From contig JAPLDR010000062.1 in assembly GCA_026391655.1 (NCBI GenBank), positions 20,284 through 84,283 of the forward strand: DNA of 64,000 bases. The letters are read 5' to 3'. The stretch is from Bacteroidia bacterium. Its GTDB lineage: Bacteria > Bacteroidota > Bacteroidia > Bacteroidales > Prolixibacteraceae. The position numbers were made by a program, and so were the translations under genes. Of this stretch, positions 57,969 through 64,000 are shown piece by piece. The stretch's first letter is position 1. Every line of letters starts with the position of its first letter. The notes under the pieces are model-generated. The model was not told where the DNA came from, ran no database searches, and saw only the letters and a program-made list of their open reading frames with translations.

Positions 57969-58469
57969 ATGATTACCAAAGACGAAGTTTGCAGTGTTCA
58001 TACCAGTACGCAGAAGGAAAAATTCGACCTTCTAGGAAATGTTATCATCGATTACGACAGGAAAGAGAGTAACCTGATTCAGATTTTACATATGGCACAG
58101 GCAATATTTGGTTACGTCCCTGCTGATGTGCAGTATTTTATTGCTGATCAGATGGAGTTGTCAATTTCAAAGGTAAACAGTGTTTTAACCTTTTATTCAT
58201 TCTTTTCAACGCAGCCAAAGGGAAAATATACAGTTTCAATATGCTTGGGTACAGCCTGCTATGTGCGTGGAGGCAAGGAAGTTCTGAATAAACTAAAATC
58301 GGTTTTAGGCATCGATGTTGGCGCAACTACCGAAGACAAAATATTTTCCCTTTCTGTGATGCGCTGCATCGGAGCATGCGGATTAGCTCCTGCAATGACC
58401 ATTAACAACAAAGTTTATAAACAGGTTAACCCGAATAAAATTCCGCGGATTCTCGGAATGCTGAAATAG
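57969..58469 (+). CDS. NuoE/HydC-like [2Fe-2S] subunit of [FeFe] hydrogenase complex
   Basis: This 166-aa thioredoxin-like ferredoxin subunit is the first gene of the hydrogenase operon. After a helical N-terminus (LIQILHMAQAIFGYVPADV...ISKVNSVLTFYSFF) it has cluster ligands Cys92 and Cys97 (SICLGTACYV) and Cys133 and Cys137 (MRCIGACGLAP), all four present. In HydABC enzymes this subunit shuttles electrons between the flavin subunit and the catalytic subunit. The gene is followed by the NuoF fusion at 73 bp. Confidence 0.93.
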   Translation: MITKDEVCSVHTSTQKEKFDLLGNVIIDYDRKESNLIQILHMAQAIFGYVPADVQYFIADQMELSISKVNSVLTFYSFFSTQPKGKYTVSICLGTACYVRGGKEVLNKLKSVLGIDVGATTEDKIFSLSVMRCIGACGLAPAMTINNKVYKQVNPNKIPRILGMLK

Positions 58470-58542: not shown

Positions 58543-61500
58543 ATGAAAATTTATAGTCTTAACGATCTTGAAGCGATCAGGAACGATTTTCTGAATCAGG
58601 AAAAGGAATTTCAGTTCACTGCTCATATTTGCTACGCTGCCGGTTGTATCTCATCTGATTGTAAGGAATTCAAAGAGGCCTTTGTGCAAGCATTGGAGCG
58701 TGAAAAACTTCAGTCAAAAGTCAAAATAAAATTGACGGGATGTATGGGTGCTTGTACATTGGGGCCCACCTTAATTATTAATCCCGGAAGTACATTATAT
58801 TGTAATCTTAAACCGGCAAATGCTACTAATATTGTGAATCAGCATATTAAAAAAGGCAGAATTGCCGAAAAATTTTGCTTCAAAGATCCTGACTCAGGTG
58901 AGATCATTCATGATTTCCATAACATCCCGTTTTTCAAACATCAGAAAAAGATAGTTCTTCAGAATTGTGGCGTCATTGATTATGGATCCATCAATGAATA
59001 CATTGCGCATAACGGGTATTTTGCATTAGGAAAAGTTCTCAATTCGATGACTGCTCTTGAGGTGATCGACGAAATAAAAAAATCGGGGTTACGCGGCCGT
59101 GGTGGCGGTGGCTTCCCCACAGGCCTTAAATGGGAAATGGCCAATGGTGCCAAAGACGGTCAGAAATACGTCATTTGCAATGCCGACGAAGGTGACCCGG
59201 GTGCATTTATGGATCGTAGTTTGCTCGAAGGTGATGCCCATACAGTGATTGAGGGAATGTTGATTTGTGGTTATGCAATCGGAGCATCTAAAGGGATCGT
59301 TTATATAAGGGCTGAATATCCGATTGCTGTTGAACGTTTGACCATGGCGATTAAGGCGGCACAGGAACTCGGGCTTTTGGGCGGGAATATTCTGGGTCGT
59401 GATTTCAATTTTGATATTGAAATCAGGATTGGAGCAGGTGCATTTGTCTGTGGCGAAGAGACTGCATTGATGAATTCGGTTGAGGGGAAAAGGGGCGAAC
59501 CCAGGCAGAAACCTCCGTTCCCGGTGCAAAGCGGGTTATTTGGAAAACCAACTGTGATAAATAATGTTGAAACCTTTGGCAATATAGCCCCTATCATTTT
59601 AAATGGGTCCGGGTGGTTTTCATCTATCGGAACGGAGAAAAGTAAAGGGACAAAAGTATTTGCAATTGCCGGGGATATCGTTCAGAAGGGATTGATTGAA
59701 GTACCAATGGGGATCACTTTGGGCGATATCATTTACGAGGTCGGTGGCGGTATTCCGAAAGGGAAATCATTTAAAGTTGCTCAGACTGGTGGTCCATCAG
59801 GCGGTTGTCTCACTGCCATACATCTTAATGTCCCAATTGACTATGACTCATTGGTTCAGCATGGTGCCATCATGGGATCGGGTGGTTTAATTTGTGCCGA
59901 TGAGGATACATGCATGGTTGATATGGCCCGTTTTTTTATGGATTTTGTTCAGGATGAGTCATGTGGAAAATGTATTCCTTGTCGCATAGGAACGAAGCGA
60001 ATGCTCGAAATCCTCGAGCGAATAACCCGCGGTGAAGGCAAAGATGGTGATGTAGATCTCCTTGTTGAATTAGGTAACTCAATCAAAGAATCTGCTATTT
60101 GTGGGTTAGGCCAGACAGCCCCGAACCCTGTTCTTAGTACGATCAAATATTTCAGGCATGAGTATGACGAGCATATTCGTCATAAATACTGTCGCGCCGG
60201 AGTTTGCGGCGATCTATTTATCTCTCCATGTCAGAACGCCTGTCCTGCCGGAGTGAATGTCCCCGGATACATCGCCCTTATTGCTGCCGGAAGGGTGCGC
60301 GATGCATATAACCTGATCCGGCAGGAGAATCCGTTTCCATCTATCTGTGGCCGGGTTTGTACGCATCCTTGCGAAAGCAAATGTCGCCGGGCACAGATCG
60401 ACGAACCAATAGCAATTGCAGATCTGAAGCGTTATGCTGCTGATTATGTGTTGAATTCAGGAGAGCCATTTATGAGCATGATTTTTCAGAAAAACGGAAA
60501 GTCTGTTGGAATTATTGGAGCCGGTCCATCGGGATTAACCTGCGGTTATTATTTAGCACTGCTTGGCTATACGGTTGATATTTATGAGGAGAAAAATGTC
60601 GCTGGTGGAATTTTGGCTTATGGAATACCCGAATACCGGCTGCCCAAGGAGGAATTGAGCAAAGAAGTTGATTCAATAACGAGGGCAGGTATTAATATCA
60701 TCTATAATTCAAAGGTTGGGACAGATATTACGTTTAAAGATTTAAAATCAAAGTATAATGCCGTTTACATAGCAACGGGAACTCAGCTTTCGCGGAAAAT
60801 CGGAATCAAAGGGGAAGAGAAAGAAGGTGTTTATCACGGGCTTGATTTCTTAAGGGACATTAATCTGAAAAAGGATGTGGAGGTAAAGGGAATCGTTGCG
60901 GTGATAGGTGGCGGAAGTACAGCCATAGATGCAGCCAGATCGGCTCTTCGACTTGGTGCTCAAAAGGTATACTTGCTTTACCGGAGGACAAAAGAAGAGA
61001 TGCCGGCCGACAAAAGAGAAATTAATGATGCCATTGAAGAGGGTGTTATCCTGCACGAACTGGTTGCGCCTGTTCGCTTTGTCGGAAACGGGGCTATTTC
61101 CCGTATTGAATGTGTTAGAATGCAACCCGGTAGTTTTGGCAAAGATGGACGGCGTGTGCCGGTAGTTATTCCCGAGTCCAACTTTATGATGGAGATCGAT
61201 CTGGCAATTCCGGCCGTGAGCCAGTACTCCGATTTCCCTTTTATTTCGAAAGCGGACGTTGGGATTACCGATTGGGGAACATTTATTGTTGATCCTGATA
61301 CACAGATGACGACTCAACCCGGAGTTTTTGCGGGGGGCGATGTGGCGCGTGGATCGGATGTTGTAATCACCGCTATCGCAGATGGTAAGAATGCTGCAAA
61401 ATCGATTGACAAATATCTTGGAGGTAAAGGTAAATTAAATATTGGTGAGCCAATCGAGCTTCCAAACAGGAGACCAGATGAAGGTGATGCTGCTGAACAT

Positions 61501-61629
61501 GAACGACTTCAGATGCGGTACCTCGATCTGGAAGAACGGAAAGGGAACTTTAATGAAGTTCCGCTTGGTTTTCATAAACTGAATGCCATTGCCGAAGCGA
61601 TGAGATGTTTACAATGTTCAAAACGTTAA
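58543..61629 (+). CDS. NuoF-GltD fusion: NADH/FMN subunit joined to FAD-NADPH module
   Basis: This 1028-aa chain contains an N-terminal thioredoxin-like [2Fe-2S] domain (Cys30, Cys35, Cys67, Cys71). A NuoF/HydB core (about 125-545) follows with the FMN/NADH motif GLRGRGGGGFPTGLKW, ICNADEGDPGAF, and the [4Fe-4S] ligands Cys474, Cys477, Cys480 and Cys520. A GltD/NfnB-like half (about 555-1028) has Fe-S cysteines 563, 567, 602, 606, 610 and 614, the FAD motif IIGAGPSGLTCGYY and the NADPH motif VIGGGSTAIDAARSAL. The usual C-terminal ferredoxin domain of HydB appears replaced by the GltD front end. The architecture implies electron exchange between NAD(H), NADP(H) and the hydrogenase; direction and bifurcation are inferred. 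It is co-transcribed with HydA (21-bp gap). Confidence 0.92.
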   Translation: MKIYSLNDLEAIRNDFLNQEKEFQFTAHICYAAGCISSDCKEFKEAFVQALEREKLQSKVKIKLTGCMGACTLGPTLIINPGSTLYCNLKPANATNIVNQHIKKGRIAEKFCFKDPDSGEIIHDFHNIPFFKHQKKIVLQNCGVIDYGSINEYIAHNGYFALGKVLNSMTALEVIDEIKKSGLRGRGGGGFPTGLKWEMANGAKDGQKYVICNADEGDPGAFMDRSLLEGDAHTVIEGMLICGYAIGASKGIVYIRAEYPIAVERLTMAIKAAQELGLLGGNILGRDFNFDIEIRIGAGAFVCGEETALMNSVEGKRGEPRQKPPFPVQSGLFGKPTVINNVETFGNIAPIILNGSGWFSSIGTEKSKGTKVFAIAGDIVQKGLIEVPMGITLGDIIYEVGGGIPKGKSFKVAQTGGPSGGCLTAIHLNVPIDYDSLVQHGAIMGSGGLICADEDTCMVDMARFFMDFVQDESCGKCIPCRIGTKRMLEILERITRGEGKDGDVDLLVELGNSIKESAICGLGQTAPNPVLSTIKYFRHEYDEHIRHKYCRAGVCGDLFISPCQNACPAGVNVPGYIALIAAGRVRDAYNLIRQENPFPSICGRVCTHPCESKCRRAQIDEPIAIADLKRYAADYVLNSGEPFMSMIFQKNGKSVGIIGAGPSGLTCGYYLALLGYTVDIYEEKNVAGGILAYGIPEYRLPKEELSKEVDSITRAGINIIYNSKVGTDITFKDLKSKYNAVYIATGTQLSRKIGIKGEEKEGVYHGLDFLRDINLKKDVEVKGIVAVIGGGSTAIDAARSALRLGAQKVYLLYRRTKEEMPADKREINDAIEEGVILHELVAPVRFVGNGAISRIECVRMQPGSFGKDGRRVPVVIPESNFMMEIDLAIPAVSQYSDFPFISKADVGITDWGTFIVDPDTQMTTQPGVFAGGDVARGSDVVITAIADGKNAAKSIDKYLGGKGKLNIGEPIELPNRRPDEGDAAEHERLQMRYLDLEERKGNFNEVPLGFHKLNAIAEAMRCLQCSKR

Positions 61630-61650: not shown

Positions 61651-63426
61651 ATGATAAATATTACCATCAATAATAAAGTCATTCAGGTTGAAGAAGGAAC
61701 TACAATATTTGAAGCAGCAAAACAGCATGGTGTTTTAATTCCTCACTTTTGCTACATGGAGAATGTCCACCAGATTGGTTCATGCCGGATCTGTGTTGTT
61801 GAAGTGGAAGGTGGGAAAACCCTGATGGCATCATGTGTCACAGAGGTAAAAGAGGGGATGATCGTTCATACAAATTCAGAACGGGTTCGCGATGTCCGGA
61901 AAGTGATTTACGAGCTAATGCTCTCGGATCATCCGAAGGAATGCCTTAGTTGCTGGCGAAATCAAAACTGTGAATTACAAGATCTTGGAAATTTAATTCA
62001 AATCAGCGAATTCAGATACGAAGGCGCTAAATCAAAGGATATTATTGACACTTCAAGTCCATCCATCGTCCGCGACAGTTCAAAATGTATTCTATGTCGC
62101 CGTTGTGTGACGGTATGTAATGATATACAAGGTGTTGGTCTGATGAATCCACATCATCGTGGTTTTTCTACCTTCATAGGACCATCGGAGGACGAACTAC
62201 TTGGTGAATCGGTTTGTACCAATTGCGTACAGTGTGTATTGGTCTGCCCTGTTGGAGCCCTGAAAGAAAAAGATTCTACAGCAATAGTCTGGGAGGCATT
62301 ATACGATAAGACAAAAACGATAGTCGTCCAAACCGCTCCTGCTGTGCGGGCAGCGCTTGGAGAAGTATTTGGTTATGAGCCTGGTATGTTAGTGACGGGA
62401 AAAATGGCTTCTGCGTTACACGAACTGGGTTTCAATTACGTTTTTGATACCAATTTCGCAGCCGATCTCACAATTATGGAAGAGGGTTCTGAATTTCTCG
62501 GAAGGGTAAAAAATGCCATCACTGCACCTGGGAAAAATGACGTTTTGCCGATGATAACAAGTTGCAGTCCAGGCTGGATAAAGTTTATTGAACACCGGTA
62601 CCCCGATCAGTTATCGAATCTTTCCAGTTGTAAATCACCACATATGATGCTTGGCGCTTTGACAAAAACCTATTTTGCCGAAAAGATGAATATTGATCCC
62701 GCAAATATTTATGTGGTTTCGGTAATGCCTTGCACAGCAAAAAAATTCGAGATCACGCGTCCCGAAATGTTTAATAACGGATTAGCCGATGTTGATGCAG
62801 TAATAACAACACGTGAGCTGGGACGGATGATTAAAGATGCAGGAATTGATTTCCGAAACTTGCCCGATGGCGAATTTGATAGTCCGTTAGGCCTTTCGTC
62901 GGGAGCTGCCGATATCTTCGGAACTACAGGAGGCGTGATGGAGGCTGCATTGCGCACAGTATATGAGTTGGTTACAGGACGTGAACTTCCTGCAAACAAT
63001 CTTCACATTACTCCTCTTGAAGGATTAGACAGAATTAAAACCGCTGAGTTGAAAATCGAAAATCCTTTACCTGAATTTAGCTTTTTGGCCGAAGTAACAG
63101 TCAAAGTCGCTGTTACGAGCGGATTATTAGGAGCCGCAGAGTTGCTTAATGAAATTAAAAAAGGTACAAGCCCCTACCATTTTATTGAAATAATGGGCTG
63201 TCCCGGTGGATGTATCAGCGGCGGTGGACAACCACGACCGGTCAATGATGCTATAAGGACGAAACGACTTGAAGCCATTTACAGGGAAGATGAAGGGAAA
63301 CTATTGCGTAAATCGCATGAAAATCAGGATATCATGATGTTATATCATGATTTCCTTGGTGTTCCTCTCGGCCATAAATCTCATGAATTGCTTCATACCG
63401 TTTATACCCGGAGAAGTAAAAATTGA
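61651..63426 (+). CDS. hydA: [FeFe] hydrogenase catalytic subunit (HydA-type)
   Basis: This 591-aa enzyme interconverts H2 and protons at an H-cluster. Its N-terminal electron chain has a [2Fe-2S] domain (Cys34, 45, 48, 62), a His-ligated cluster (His94, Cys98, 101, 107; HPKECLSCWRNQNCELQ) and two [4Fe-4S] sites (Cys146/149/152/156 and 189/192/195/199). The H domain has L1 MITSCSPGW (303-309 TSCSPGW), L2 MPCTAKK (Cys361) and L3 MGCPGGCISGGGQP (Cys517, Cys521). L1 has Ser306 where the prototype has the second Cys. The neighbours indicate a soluble, flavin-linked trimeric or larger complex. Maturases HydEFG are not in the window. Confidence 0.96.
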   Translation: MINITINNKVIQVEEGTTIFEAAKQHGVLIPHFCYMENVHQIGSCRICVVEVEGGKTLMASCVTEVKEGMIVHTNSERVRDVRKVIYELMLSDHPKECLSCWRNQNCELQDLGNLIQISEFRYEGAKSKDIIDTSSPSIVRDSSKCILCRRCVTVCNDIQGVGLMNPHHRGFSTFIGPSEDELLGESVCTNCVQCVLVCPVGALKEKDSTAIVWEALYDKTKTIVVQTAPAVRAALGEVFGYEPGMLVTGKMASALHELGFNYVFDTNFAADLTIMEEGSEFLGRVKNAITAPGKNDVLPMITSCSPGWIKFIEHRYPDQLSNLSSCKSPHMMLGALTKTYFAEKMNIDPANIYVVSVMPCTAKKFEITRPEMFNNGLADVDAVITTRELGRMIKDAGIDFRNLPDGEFDSPLGLSSGAADIFGTTGGVMEAALRTVYELVTGRELPANNLHITPLEGLDRIKTAELKIENPLPEFSFLAEVTVKVAVTSGLLGAAELLNEIKKGTSPYHFIEIMGCPGGCISGGGQPRPVNDAIRTKRLEAIYREDEGKLLRKSHENQDIMMLYHDFLGVPLGHKSHELLHTVYTRRSKN

Positions 63427-63484: not shown

Positions 63485-63976
63485 ATGAATCCAGTTACTG
63501 ACCTCATTAAAAGCCTTGCTGACCAACATGGCCGAAGCAGGCATAATCTGCTGCCGATTCTTCAGGGAGTCGTTGAACAGGAAAAATACCTTTCCGAATA
63601 TTCTATGATTGAGATTGCCCGCGAACTTGATCTGCCGGCATCTGAAGTTTACGGTACCGCAACCTTTTATTCTTTTCTCGAATACAAAAAAATGGGCAGG
63701 TATATCATTCGTATCTGCAAAACCATTACTTGTTCCATGAAAGGGAAAAATCAGGTTCTGCTCGCCATCCAGGACATGTTAAAAATCGGGGTCGGAGAAA
63801 CTACCCCCGACGGAACTTTCTCACTGCTTCAAACCAATTGTCTGGGATTTTGCCACAAGGCACCTGCAATGCTTGTGAACAATGAGGTTTTTACTGATCT
63901 GACTCCTGAAAAAGTGCGTGAAATATTGAGAATGTATATGAATAAGAAAAAGGAAGGAGGATCATATGACAACTAG
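63485..63976 (+). CDS. Second NuoE-like [2Fe-2S] subunit
   Basis: This 163-aa protein is a second thioredoxin-like ferredoxin subunit of the operon, with Cys78, Cys83 (RICKTITCSMKG) and Cys119, Cys123 (TNCLGFCHKAPAML). It has the usual NuoE N-terminal helices (LLPILQGVVEQEKYLSEYS, VYGTATFYSFLEY) but differs from the first NuoE (57969-58469) throughout. The stop codon overlaps the start of the next gene. It probably serves a second flavin subunit. Confidence 0.93.
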   Translation: MNPVTDLIKSLADQHGRSRHNLLPILQGVVEQEKYLSEYSMIEIARELDLPASEVYGTATFYSFLEYKKMGRYIIRICKTITCSMKGKNQVLLAIQDMLKIGVGETTPDGTFSLLQTNCLGFCHKAPAMLVNNEVFTDLTPEKVREILRMYMNKKKEGGSYDN

Positions 63977-64000
63977 TTACCAGCTAAAACGAGCCGATTT
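63966..64000 (+). CDS. Start of next operon gene (partial), possibly NuoF-like
   Basis: ATG 63966 lies 11 bp inside the end of the NuoE-like gene and is preceded by the purine-rich AAGGAGG at 63954-63960. Only MTTSYQLKRAD is visible before the window ends. Position after nuoE suggests a NuoF-like subunit, but this is not shown by the sequence. Confidence 0.5.
   Translation, partial: MTTSYQLKRAD

What the first reader, a model, noticed from the sequence alone, without database searches (positions are those of the whole stretch)
58543..61629. Hydrogenase operon subunit fuses NuoF (NADH/FMN) to a GltD/NfnB-like (FAD/NADPH) module
Seen: one 1028-aa frame holds a [2Fe-2S] domain, the NuoF FMN/NADH and Fe-S motifs, then two GltD-type Fe-S motifs, FAD GAGPSG and NADPH GGGSTA motifs. 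It lies directly before hydA. Known: HydABC hydrogenases bifurcate between NADH and ferredoxin, and NfnAB and Stn use a GltD-like subunit for NADPH. Inference: this enzyme may link H2 with NADH, NADPH and ferredoxin in one complex, acting as both hydrogenase and transhydrogenase.
Basis: partly seen in the sequence, partly recalled or inferred. Interest (0 to 1): 0.7.

Follow-up and report, generated by a model that had tools for sequence, protein, structure and literature searches.

The report
Hydrogenase subunit with built-in NADPH module
A bacterial hydrogen enzyme has its ferredoxin-docking tail replaced by an NADPH-handling module; the layout was described in 2024, but the sequence evidence here suggests it pairs NAD and NADP instead of NAD and ferredoxin, which has not been tested in the laboratory.

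Summary
Window 58543-61629 is one open 1028-residue frame: a bifurcating-type HydB/NuoF half, then a GltD/StnC-type FAD/NADPH half, between a NuoE-like gene and hydA. It is no assembly join: full-length copies occur in 12 of 18 genomes of the genus, and 59 of the 80 best loci of a species-wide scan carry it. The architecture is in print: Zheng & Huang 2024, 'sub-type I BfuB'.

The module replaces the B3/B4 ferredoxin-docking tail, keeps the FMN/B1/B2 core, and is of the StnC kind (permuted; Lys or His where NfnB has Glu; NADP arginines). NADP+ therefore probably takes ferredoxin's place: 2 H2 + NAD+ + NADP+ <=> NADH + NADPH. Ferredoxin docking on the module's clusters is not excluded.

Two further results: ferredoxin and NADP tails have been exchanged repeatedly on the same core, and the fused core also sits beside NiFe-hydrogenase, molybdopterin/MetVF and glutamate-synthase-like genes. 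In the window the operon continues into a second, plain NADH-type hydrogenase. No biochemistry was done.

The parts
57969..58469 (+). hydC1: NuoE/HydC-like [2Fe-2S] subunit, 166 aa (cluster C1)
   Evidence: Pfam 2Fe-2S_thioredx E 5.9e-49
58543..61629 (+). HydB-GltD fusion subunit, 1028 aa
   Evidence: AlphaFold2 model pLDDT 89.5, pTM 0.85
58630..58755 (+). N-terminal [2Fe-2S] site B5 (C30, C35, C67, C71)
   Evidence: C30 is Cys in 50 of 67 aligned fusions, C35 in 48, C67 and C71 in 65 (2 rows gapped)
59074..59589 (+). FMN/NAD(H)-binding domain (Complex1_51K, aa 178-349)
59920..60174 (+). NADH_4Fe-4S domain with cluster B1 (C474, C477, C480, C520)
   Evidence: 67 of 67 fusions
60172..60207 (+). 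B2 site residues H544, C550, C555 (with C457 and T484 upstream)
   Evidence: C457, H544, C550 and C555 in 67 of 67, T484 in 54 of 67; residue roles from PMC8880783 passages
60205..60459 (+). Fer4_20 / DPD_II two-cluster domain in place of the B3/B4 ferredoxin-type tail
60502..61386 (+). FAD and NADP(H) Rossmann domains (GAGPSG, GGGSTA, YRR)
61576..61617 (+). C-terminal RCLQC helix that should supply the permuted cluster ligands
   Evidence: C1022 and C1025 in 67 of 67
61651..63426 (+). hydA1: [FeFe] hydrogenase subunit, 591 aa, NuoG-type Fe-S domains plus H-cluster domain
63485..63976 (+). hydC2: first gene of a second hydrogenase trimer
63966..64000 (+). start of hydB2 (394 aa plain NuoF; continues in L003, then hydA2, 596 aa, and a DJ-1-like gene)

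Best explanation
The fusion is the B subunit of a soluble [FeFe] hydrogenase (HydC1-fusion-HydA1) of the Bfu/HydABC kind, in which the ferredoxin-docking B3/B4 tail has been replaced by an StnC-type FAD/NADP(H) module. Shown by sequence: the H-cluster subunit, FMN/NADH site, B1 cluster, B2 site, two-cluster DPD_II domain, FAD and NADP motifs, and the absence of the B3/B4 tail. Inferred: electrons from H2 run through HydA1 and B1 to FMN. One branch reduces NAD+ at FMN. The other runs through C1 of HydC1 and B2 into the DPD_II clusters and FAD, and reduces NADP+. The reaction would be 2 H2 + NAD+ + NADP+ <=> NADH + NADPH + 2 H+, reversible and without ferredoxin. With the physiological potentials of Schut et al. 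Table 1 (NAD -280, NADP -380, Fd -500 mV), H2 evolution from NADH plus NADPH would be balanced near 150 Pa H2. That lies between NADH alone (about 3 Pa) and NADH plus ferredoxin (about 16 kPa).
For: Domains. The NuoF half matches NfnB and bifurcating HydB: Z 57.4 over 524 residues to 9bp5_B; 68% identity to A. woodii HydB 7q4w_B over 423 aligned residues. The second half matches T. sibiricus NfnABC subunit A, 9n5v_A, at Z 48.9 over 450 residues and StnC residues 102-566 by sequence. In 67 aligned fusions the B1 cysteines, C457/H544/C550/C555, five DPD_II cysteines, the C-terminal RCLxC pair and R699 are invariant; YRR in 65; the StnC-K170 position is Lys in 58, His in 9, Glu in none. NuoF-half tree: the fusions are not one clade (AU p 0.0026), and starred branches force at least 4 changes between ferredoxin tail and NADP tail, so the two tails have been exchanged on one core. 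HydG maturase is present; no RnfC scores over its cut-off (genome 96% complete).
Against: No activity, structure of the complex or cofactor content was measured. In NfnAB the same kind of cluster domain serves ferredoxin, so absence of B3/B4 need not end ferredoxin use. The B2 residue set discriminates only partly: the complex-I-like NuoF of the same genome has C, T, H and C and lacks only the last Cys. FMN-based bifurcation in HydABC is itself debated, and this site was assigned to Zn in T. maritima (PMC9499530 passages). NADP arginines are lost in 2 of 67 (L055, L060). The genome has 4 POR-domain hits and a NuoE-HydB protein with an intact ferredoxin-type tail (L122), so ferredoxin metabolism exists in the cell.
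Confidence: 0.5

Rival explanations
1. Three-carrier enzyme, as the first reader and (in part) Zheng & Huang propose: ferredoxin still takes part, docking on the DPD_II clusters, with FMN and/or FAD as bifurcation centre, so that H2, NADH, NADPH and ferredoxin are all linked.
For: In NfnAB the GltD-like subunit holds b-FAD, two [4Fe-4S] clusters and the ferredoxin site (PMC10482914 passage). R699, the NfnB R201 / StnC R239 equivalent, is invariant. Zheng & Huang postulate a possible FAD bifurcation centre.
Against: No B3/B4 domain. The module is the permuted StnC type, with Lys/His and never Glu at the proximal-cluster position in 67 sequences; in Stn this FAD was concluded to be non-bifurcating.
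Confidence: 0.25
2. Non-bifurcating enzyme: an NAD(P)-linked hydrogenase and transhydrogenase in which NAD and NADP are alternative, uncoupled partners.
For: HydA1 scores above the NCBIfam cut-off for 'NADH-dependent [FeFe] hydrogenase, group A6' (863 against 765 bits). The S. wolfei HydB, which lacks B3 and B4, did not bifurcate (told in PMC11406978). B2 residues are partly present in complex-I-like NuoF.
Against: The NuoF half groups with ferredoxin-tailed HydB and keeps C457/H544/C550/C555 in 67 of 67. hydA2, beside the plain NuoF, reaches the same A6 model (877 bits), so that model does not separate the two types.
Confidence: 0.23
3. The two trimers encoded in tandem (hydC1-fusion-hydA1 and hydC2-hydB2-hydA2) form one larger complex, with two diaphorase arms feeding hydrogenase subunits.
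For: Both sets are complete in 8 of the 12 genus genomes with the fusion (7 in the same order, L028 swapped; L024 keeps only a hydA2 remnant, L025 shows none in the 17 kb fetched, L026 and L031 run out of contig). In L058, L059 and the split locus L090 two hydC-hydB sets have one full hydA. The second HydB of the window, L045, L047, L058, L059 and L090 lacks the ferredoxin tail (6 of 6).
Against: None of the 10 other genomes from a 395-genome phylum sample shows a second set in the 11-19 kb fetched. The further second HydBs near fusions, in L044 (other strand) and L081 (about 6 kb away), do have ferredoxin tails. The order is swapped in L028. Each set is complete in the window genome.
Confidence: 0.1

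Closest known systems
Sub-type I BfuABC, Hydrogenedentota [FeFe] group A3 (Zheng & Huang 2024, PMC11406978)
   Same: BfuB in which the B3/B4 domain is replaced by DPD_II plus a C-terminal FAD/NAD(P) domain, beside FeFe BfuA and BfuC (abstract and sections 7-9 read).
   Different: Another phylum (19 SusD hits suggest Bacteroidota). The word start 'NADP' does not occur in their main text ('NAD(P)' does), and they propose a possible FAD bifurcation centre; here the evidence points to NADP replacing ferredoxin. Their sequences were not compared directly.
Stn / Nfn-Bfu transhydrogenase (StnABC, NfnABC)
   Same: Same HydB-like core and same permuted GltD module with Lys at the proximal cluster.
   Different: In Stn the module sits inside the NuoG-like subunit (in the A. 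noterae operon, between parts matching hydA1 2-98 and 98-207), the B subunit keeps a ferredoxin tail, and the third substrate is NADP, not H2.
HydABC bifurcating [FeFe] hydrogenase (A. woodii, T. maritima)
   Same: HydC, HydB core and HydA with H-cluster domain; NuoF half 68% identical to A. woodii HydB over 423 aligned residues.
   Different: No B3/B4 ferredoxin domain; extra FAD/NADP module.
NfnAB (NfnB/NfnL)
   Same: GltD-like FAD/NADP(H) fold with two [4Fe-4S] clusters.
   Different: RCLQC helix N-terminal in NfnL, C-terminal here; Glu in NfnB, Lys/His here.
HydDB group A2 'glutamate synthase-linked' [FeFe] hydrogenase
   Same: FeFe hydrogenase next to a GltD-like protein.
   Different: HydDB assigns A2 if the protein downstream of the catalytic subunit has GltD-type domains but not NuoF, and A3 (NAD plus ferredoxin) if it has NuoF (passages); a fusion holding both is not foreseen, and here it lies upstream of hydA.

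Membership tests
Sub-type I BfuB (Zheng & Huang 2024) | B3/B4 domain replaced by DPD_II with a C-terminal FAD/NAD(P) domain | tested here: met
   Pfam Fer4_20 and Pyr_redox_2 directly after NADH_4Fe-4S; no Fer4-type family at E 0.001
Sub-type I BfuB (Zheng & Huang 2024) | Beside FeFe bfuA and bfuC | tested here: met
   hydC1 and hydA1 flank it
Sub-type I BfuB (Zheng & Huang 2024) | Groups with the Hydrogenedentota sub-type I sequences in a tree | not tested
   their sequences were not fetched
Bfu family (Schut et al. 2022) | BfuB has IPR017896 (4Fe-4S ferredoxin-type, B3/B4) | tested here: not met
   by Pfam as a stand-in: no Fer4-type family in P0001 at E 0.001, whereas the ferredoxin-tailed L122 protein gives Fer4, Fer4_7 and Fer4_21; InterPro itself was not run; definition read
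Bfu family (Schut et al. 2022) | B2 residues Cys, Cys/Thr, His, Cys, Cys | tested here: met
   C457, T484, H544, C550, C555; four of the five also in a complex-I-like NuoF
Bfu family (Schut et al. 2022) | Bifurcates between NAD and ferredoxin | not testable with these tools
   needs enzyme assay
Stn transhydrogenase | GltD-like module with Lys at the K170 position and C-terminal RCLxC | tested here: met
   K629, C1022, C1025
Stn transhydrogenase | Module located in the NuoG-like subunit; no hydrogenase | tested here: not met
   module is in the B subunit; HydA1 has an H-cluster domain
NfnAB | Glu at the proximal cluster, b-FAD | tested here: not met
   Lys or His in 67 of 67; Glu in NfnB and the 5jca_L alignment

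The most novel reading that the evidence does not exclude
A whole parallel branch of the Bfu family uses NADP(H) in place of ferredoxin as low-potential partner. The fused HydB-GltD core is a transferable module that has been exchanged with the ferredoxin-tailed form several times. It serves not only [FeFe] hydrogenases but also NiFe hydrogenases, molybdopterin/MetVF enzymes and glutamate-synthase-like proteins. In the window genus it is paired with an NADH-only hydrogenase as a two-gear H2 valve without ferredoxin.
Probability: 0.4. Interest if true: 0.78.

Novelty: new member of a known kind. Interest (0 to 1): 0.55.

Why it matters
If NADP replaces ferredoxin, genomes with this fusion are misread wherever a NuoF-bearing [FeFe] hydrogenase is taken as proof of ferredoxin-linked bifurcation. 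Their H2 yields, H2 thresholds and NADPH budgets would differ: a predicted balance near 150 Pa H2 instead of about 16 kPa. It would also be a natural experiment on how the disputed FMN/Fe-S bifurcation site works, since the acceptor on the low-potential branch has been swapped for another.

Tried and rejected
Assembly join or chimeric gene: rejected, because full-length copies occur in independent genomes.

Acetoanaerobium noterae hit (94% of the query in two pieces): looked like a fusion, but the locus encodes a Stn operon with the module inside a 1196-aa subunit. Not counted.

B2 residues as proof of bifurcation: weakened, because the complex-I-like NuoF of the same genome has four of five.

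Tandem second hydrogenase as a general feature: rejected. Not seen around the fusion in the 10 other genomes of the phylum sample; found in the genus and in L045, L047, L058, L059 and L090.

Monophyly of all fusions: rejected for the NuoF half. In the GltD half the fusions need one change only, but support is 69 with 6 outgroup rows, so that says little.

Rows dropped: seven near-identical genus rows, and the row L108_p534, before the tree; those seven, three more genus rows and all rows without a ferredoxin tail before the tree; the ten genus rows and other GltD-like pieces with 330 or fewer aligned residues before the tree. One search warns that long branches meet (L003 hydB2 with L128), so its basal order is not used.

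Literature: eight full-text searches. Of the 15 papers opened, only PMC11406978 describes the fusion in what I saw. Seen of each: PMC11406978 abstract, sections 7-9, passages; PMC9304861 abstract, section 4 part 1 of 2, section 5 parts 1-2 of 3, section 6 part 1 of 2, passages; PMC10482914 section 9 and passages; passages only of PMC8880783, PMC9499530, PMC6288185, PMC7311640, PMC7483475, PMC5037454, PMC6349859, PMC3543383, PMC9012536, PMC5736913, PMC7325909 and PMC8965080. PMC5626996: title and start of abstract in a listing. PMC10327494 was listed but could not be opened. Most listed papers were not opened; subscription papers, preprints and supplements were not searched.
Full report
What is there. 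Window 58543-61629 is one open frame of 1028 residues. Pfam finds a NuoF-type FMN domain, SLBB and NADH_4Fe-4S domains, then Fer4_20 (DPD_II) and Pyr_redox_2; the N-terminal thioredoxin-like [2Fe-2S] domain is just under its cut-off but has all four cysteines. Upstream is a NuoE-like gene (57969-58469), downstream an [FeFe] hydrogenase gene (61651-63426). Past the window end the operon continues with a second hydC, a plain 394-residue NuoF, a second hydA and a DJ-1-like gene. hydA1 and hydA2 are 54% identical.

It is real. The same full-length fusion is in 12 of 18 genomes of the own genus (G000 included), and at 77%, 48% and 45% in three further genomes among the 61 searched. It is in 11 of 395 genomes sampled evenly from the phylum, G000 being one of the 11 (E limit 1e-228, so more diverged copies could be missed). 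Of these, 53 hold one frame with both halves to near the C-terminus; L059 ends in the same RCLxC motif but aligns only to query 399 of the GltD half; 5 more (L053, L065, L070, L084, L096) are cut by the contig end: 59 of 80. L090 has it split in two frames. Record titles name Firmicutes/Clostridia, Bacteroidetes, Deltaproteobacteria, Spirochaetes, Chloroflexi, Acidobacteria, Planctomycetota, Omnitrophota, Verrucomicrobia, Nitrospirae and others.

The first half. The NuoF half is of the NfnB/HydB kind: best structural match 9bp5_B (Nfn-ABC) at Z 57.4, rmsd 1.5, 524 residues; 68% identity to A. woodii HydB 7q4w_B over 423 aligned residues (model pLDDT 89.5, pTM 0.85). Across 67 aligned fusions (the 53 scan loci, the window and 13 fetched relatives) the B1 cysteines and C457, H544, C550 and C555 of the B2 site are invariant. 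The same four are invariant in 28 of 28 ferredoxin-tailed HydBs. A caution: the complex-I-like NuoF of the same genome has all but C555.

The second half. It aligns with StnC residues 102-566 and with NfnL, but the RCLQC helix that is N-terminal in NfnL and in 4ylf is C-terminal here, as in StnC. So the module is the permuted StnC kind. The position of StnC K170, a cluster ligand that is Glu in NfnB, is Lys in 58 and His in 9 of 67, never Glu. The arginines of the YRR motif are present in 65 of 67; the exceptions are L055 and L060. Arginines that stabilise the 2'-phosphate of NADP(H) are described for a related subunit in PMC8965080 (passage); that YRR is that site is recalled and inferred from the alignment. 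In Stn this FAD was concluded to be the non-bifurcating flavin (PMC10482914 section 9).

What is missing. HydB of bifurcating enzymes ends in a two-cluster domain (B3, B4) proposed as the ferredoxin exit (PMC9304861). In the fusion no such domain is found; the first DPD_II cysteine (C563) comes eight residues after the last B2 cysteine (C555). The module thus stands where the ferredoxin domain stands in the relatives.

Mechanism. I therefore think NADP+ replaces ferredoxin on the low-potential branch, with FMN/NAD+ as the other branch. Shown: the parts. Inferred: electron path, coupling and stoichiometry. With the potentials of Schut et al. Table 1 the equilibrium H2 pressure would be about 3 Pa for NADH, 147 Pa for NADH plus NADPH, and 15.6 kPa for NADH plus ferredoxin. 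The second operon encodes a plain NuoF without N-terminal [2Fe-2S], B2 tail or ferredoxin domain; Schut et al. list the S. wolfei hydrogenase among non-bifurcating enzymes whose B subunit lacks B2-B5, and its paper calls it NADH-dependent and ferredoxin-independent (title seen). The pair could be two gears of one H2 valve; this is a proposal.

Exchange of tails. In a tree of NuoF halves (57 fusions, 28 ferredoxin-tailed) the fusions are not one clade: 7 changes, at least 4 forced by starred branches, 0% of 200 bootstrap trees with one, AU p 0.0026. The same core has switched between a ferredoxin tail and an NADP tail several times; the tree does not tell the direction.

Other partners. Among 59 fusion loci examined, the neighbours within a few kb include [FeFe] HydA in 22, molybdopterin oxidoreductase and/or MetV/MetF in 8, NiFe large subunit in 6, a Glu_synthase-domain protein with a short NuoG-like protein in 6, a CooC-like ATPase in 1, and none assigned in 16, of which 12 have under 1.5 kb of sequence after the fusion (labels by similarity to proteins typed with Pfam). 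In the phylum sample, 9 of the 10 other genomes have hydA next to the fusion and 1 has the Glu_synthase-like pair. Adjacency does not prove a complex.

Known or new. Zheng & Huang 2024 (PMC11406978; abstract and sections 7-9 read) describe the same replacement of B3/B4 by DPD_II plus FAD/NAD(P) as 'sub-type I BfuB' and postulate an extra FAD bifurcation centre. Schut et al. 2022 required IPR017896 in BfuB, which would leave such fusions out of their 1558 sequences (my inference). In what I opened I found no text that proposes NADP in place of ferredoxin, or the non-hydrogenase partners (searches). The window protein is thus a new member of a known architecture with a sharper, testable reading.

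Noticed in passing
window 63485-64000 and L003:7769-11848: A second, complete hydC-hydB-hydA set follows directly, with a plain 394-aa NuoF and then a DJ-1-like gene. Both sets are complete in 8 of 12 genus genomes with the fusion; in L028 the order is swapped.
   Followed up: yes
L067, L073, L074, L080, L083, L085, L139: The fusion sits beside a 224-253 aa NuoG-like protein and a 526-585 aa protein with part of the Glu_synthase domain (sizes for the first six; L139 by tblastn match); substrate unknown.
   Followed up: partly
L049, L054, L055, L056, L060: The fusion sits beside MetV/MetF-type (methylene-THF reductase) genes and, in four of the five, a molybdopterin oxidoreductase gene. L055 and L060 have lost the NADP arginines, hinting at NAD specificity.
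   Followed up: partly
L058, L059, L090: Two hydC-hydB sets with a single full hydA, which suggests a shared hydrogenase subunit (L090 also has a 897-aa frame with a weaker hydA-like match).
   Followed up: partly
L121:3504-10553 (own genome C121): A 1488-aa flavoprotein carries Fer4_20 and Pyr_redox_2, the same kind of GltD module, near its N-terminus, beside CCG-domain, FlpD (MvhD-type) and MetV-type proteins: an Hdr-like complex with a GltD module.
   Followed up: partly
L122:6194-8701 (own genome C4, minus strand): An 835-aa NuoE-HydB fusion with an intact ferredoxin-type tail; no hydA among the ORFs listed beside it.
   Followed up: partly
L090:8998-11989: In an Atribacteria record the fusion is split into two open frames (620 and 370 aa) with an ambiguous residue near the break; left as it is.
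   Followed up: no
own genome G000: No RnfC hit above cut-off, while HydG and four POR-domain hits are present; how reduced ferredoxin is reoxidised is open.
   Followed up: partly
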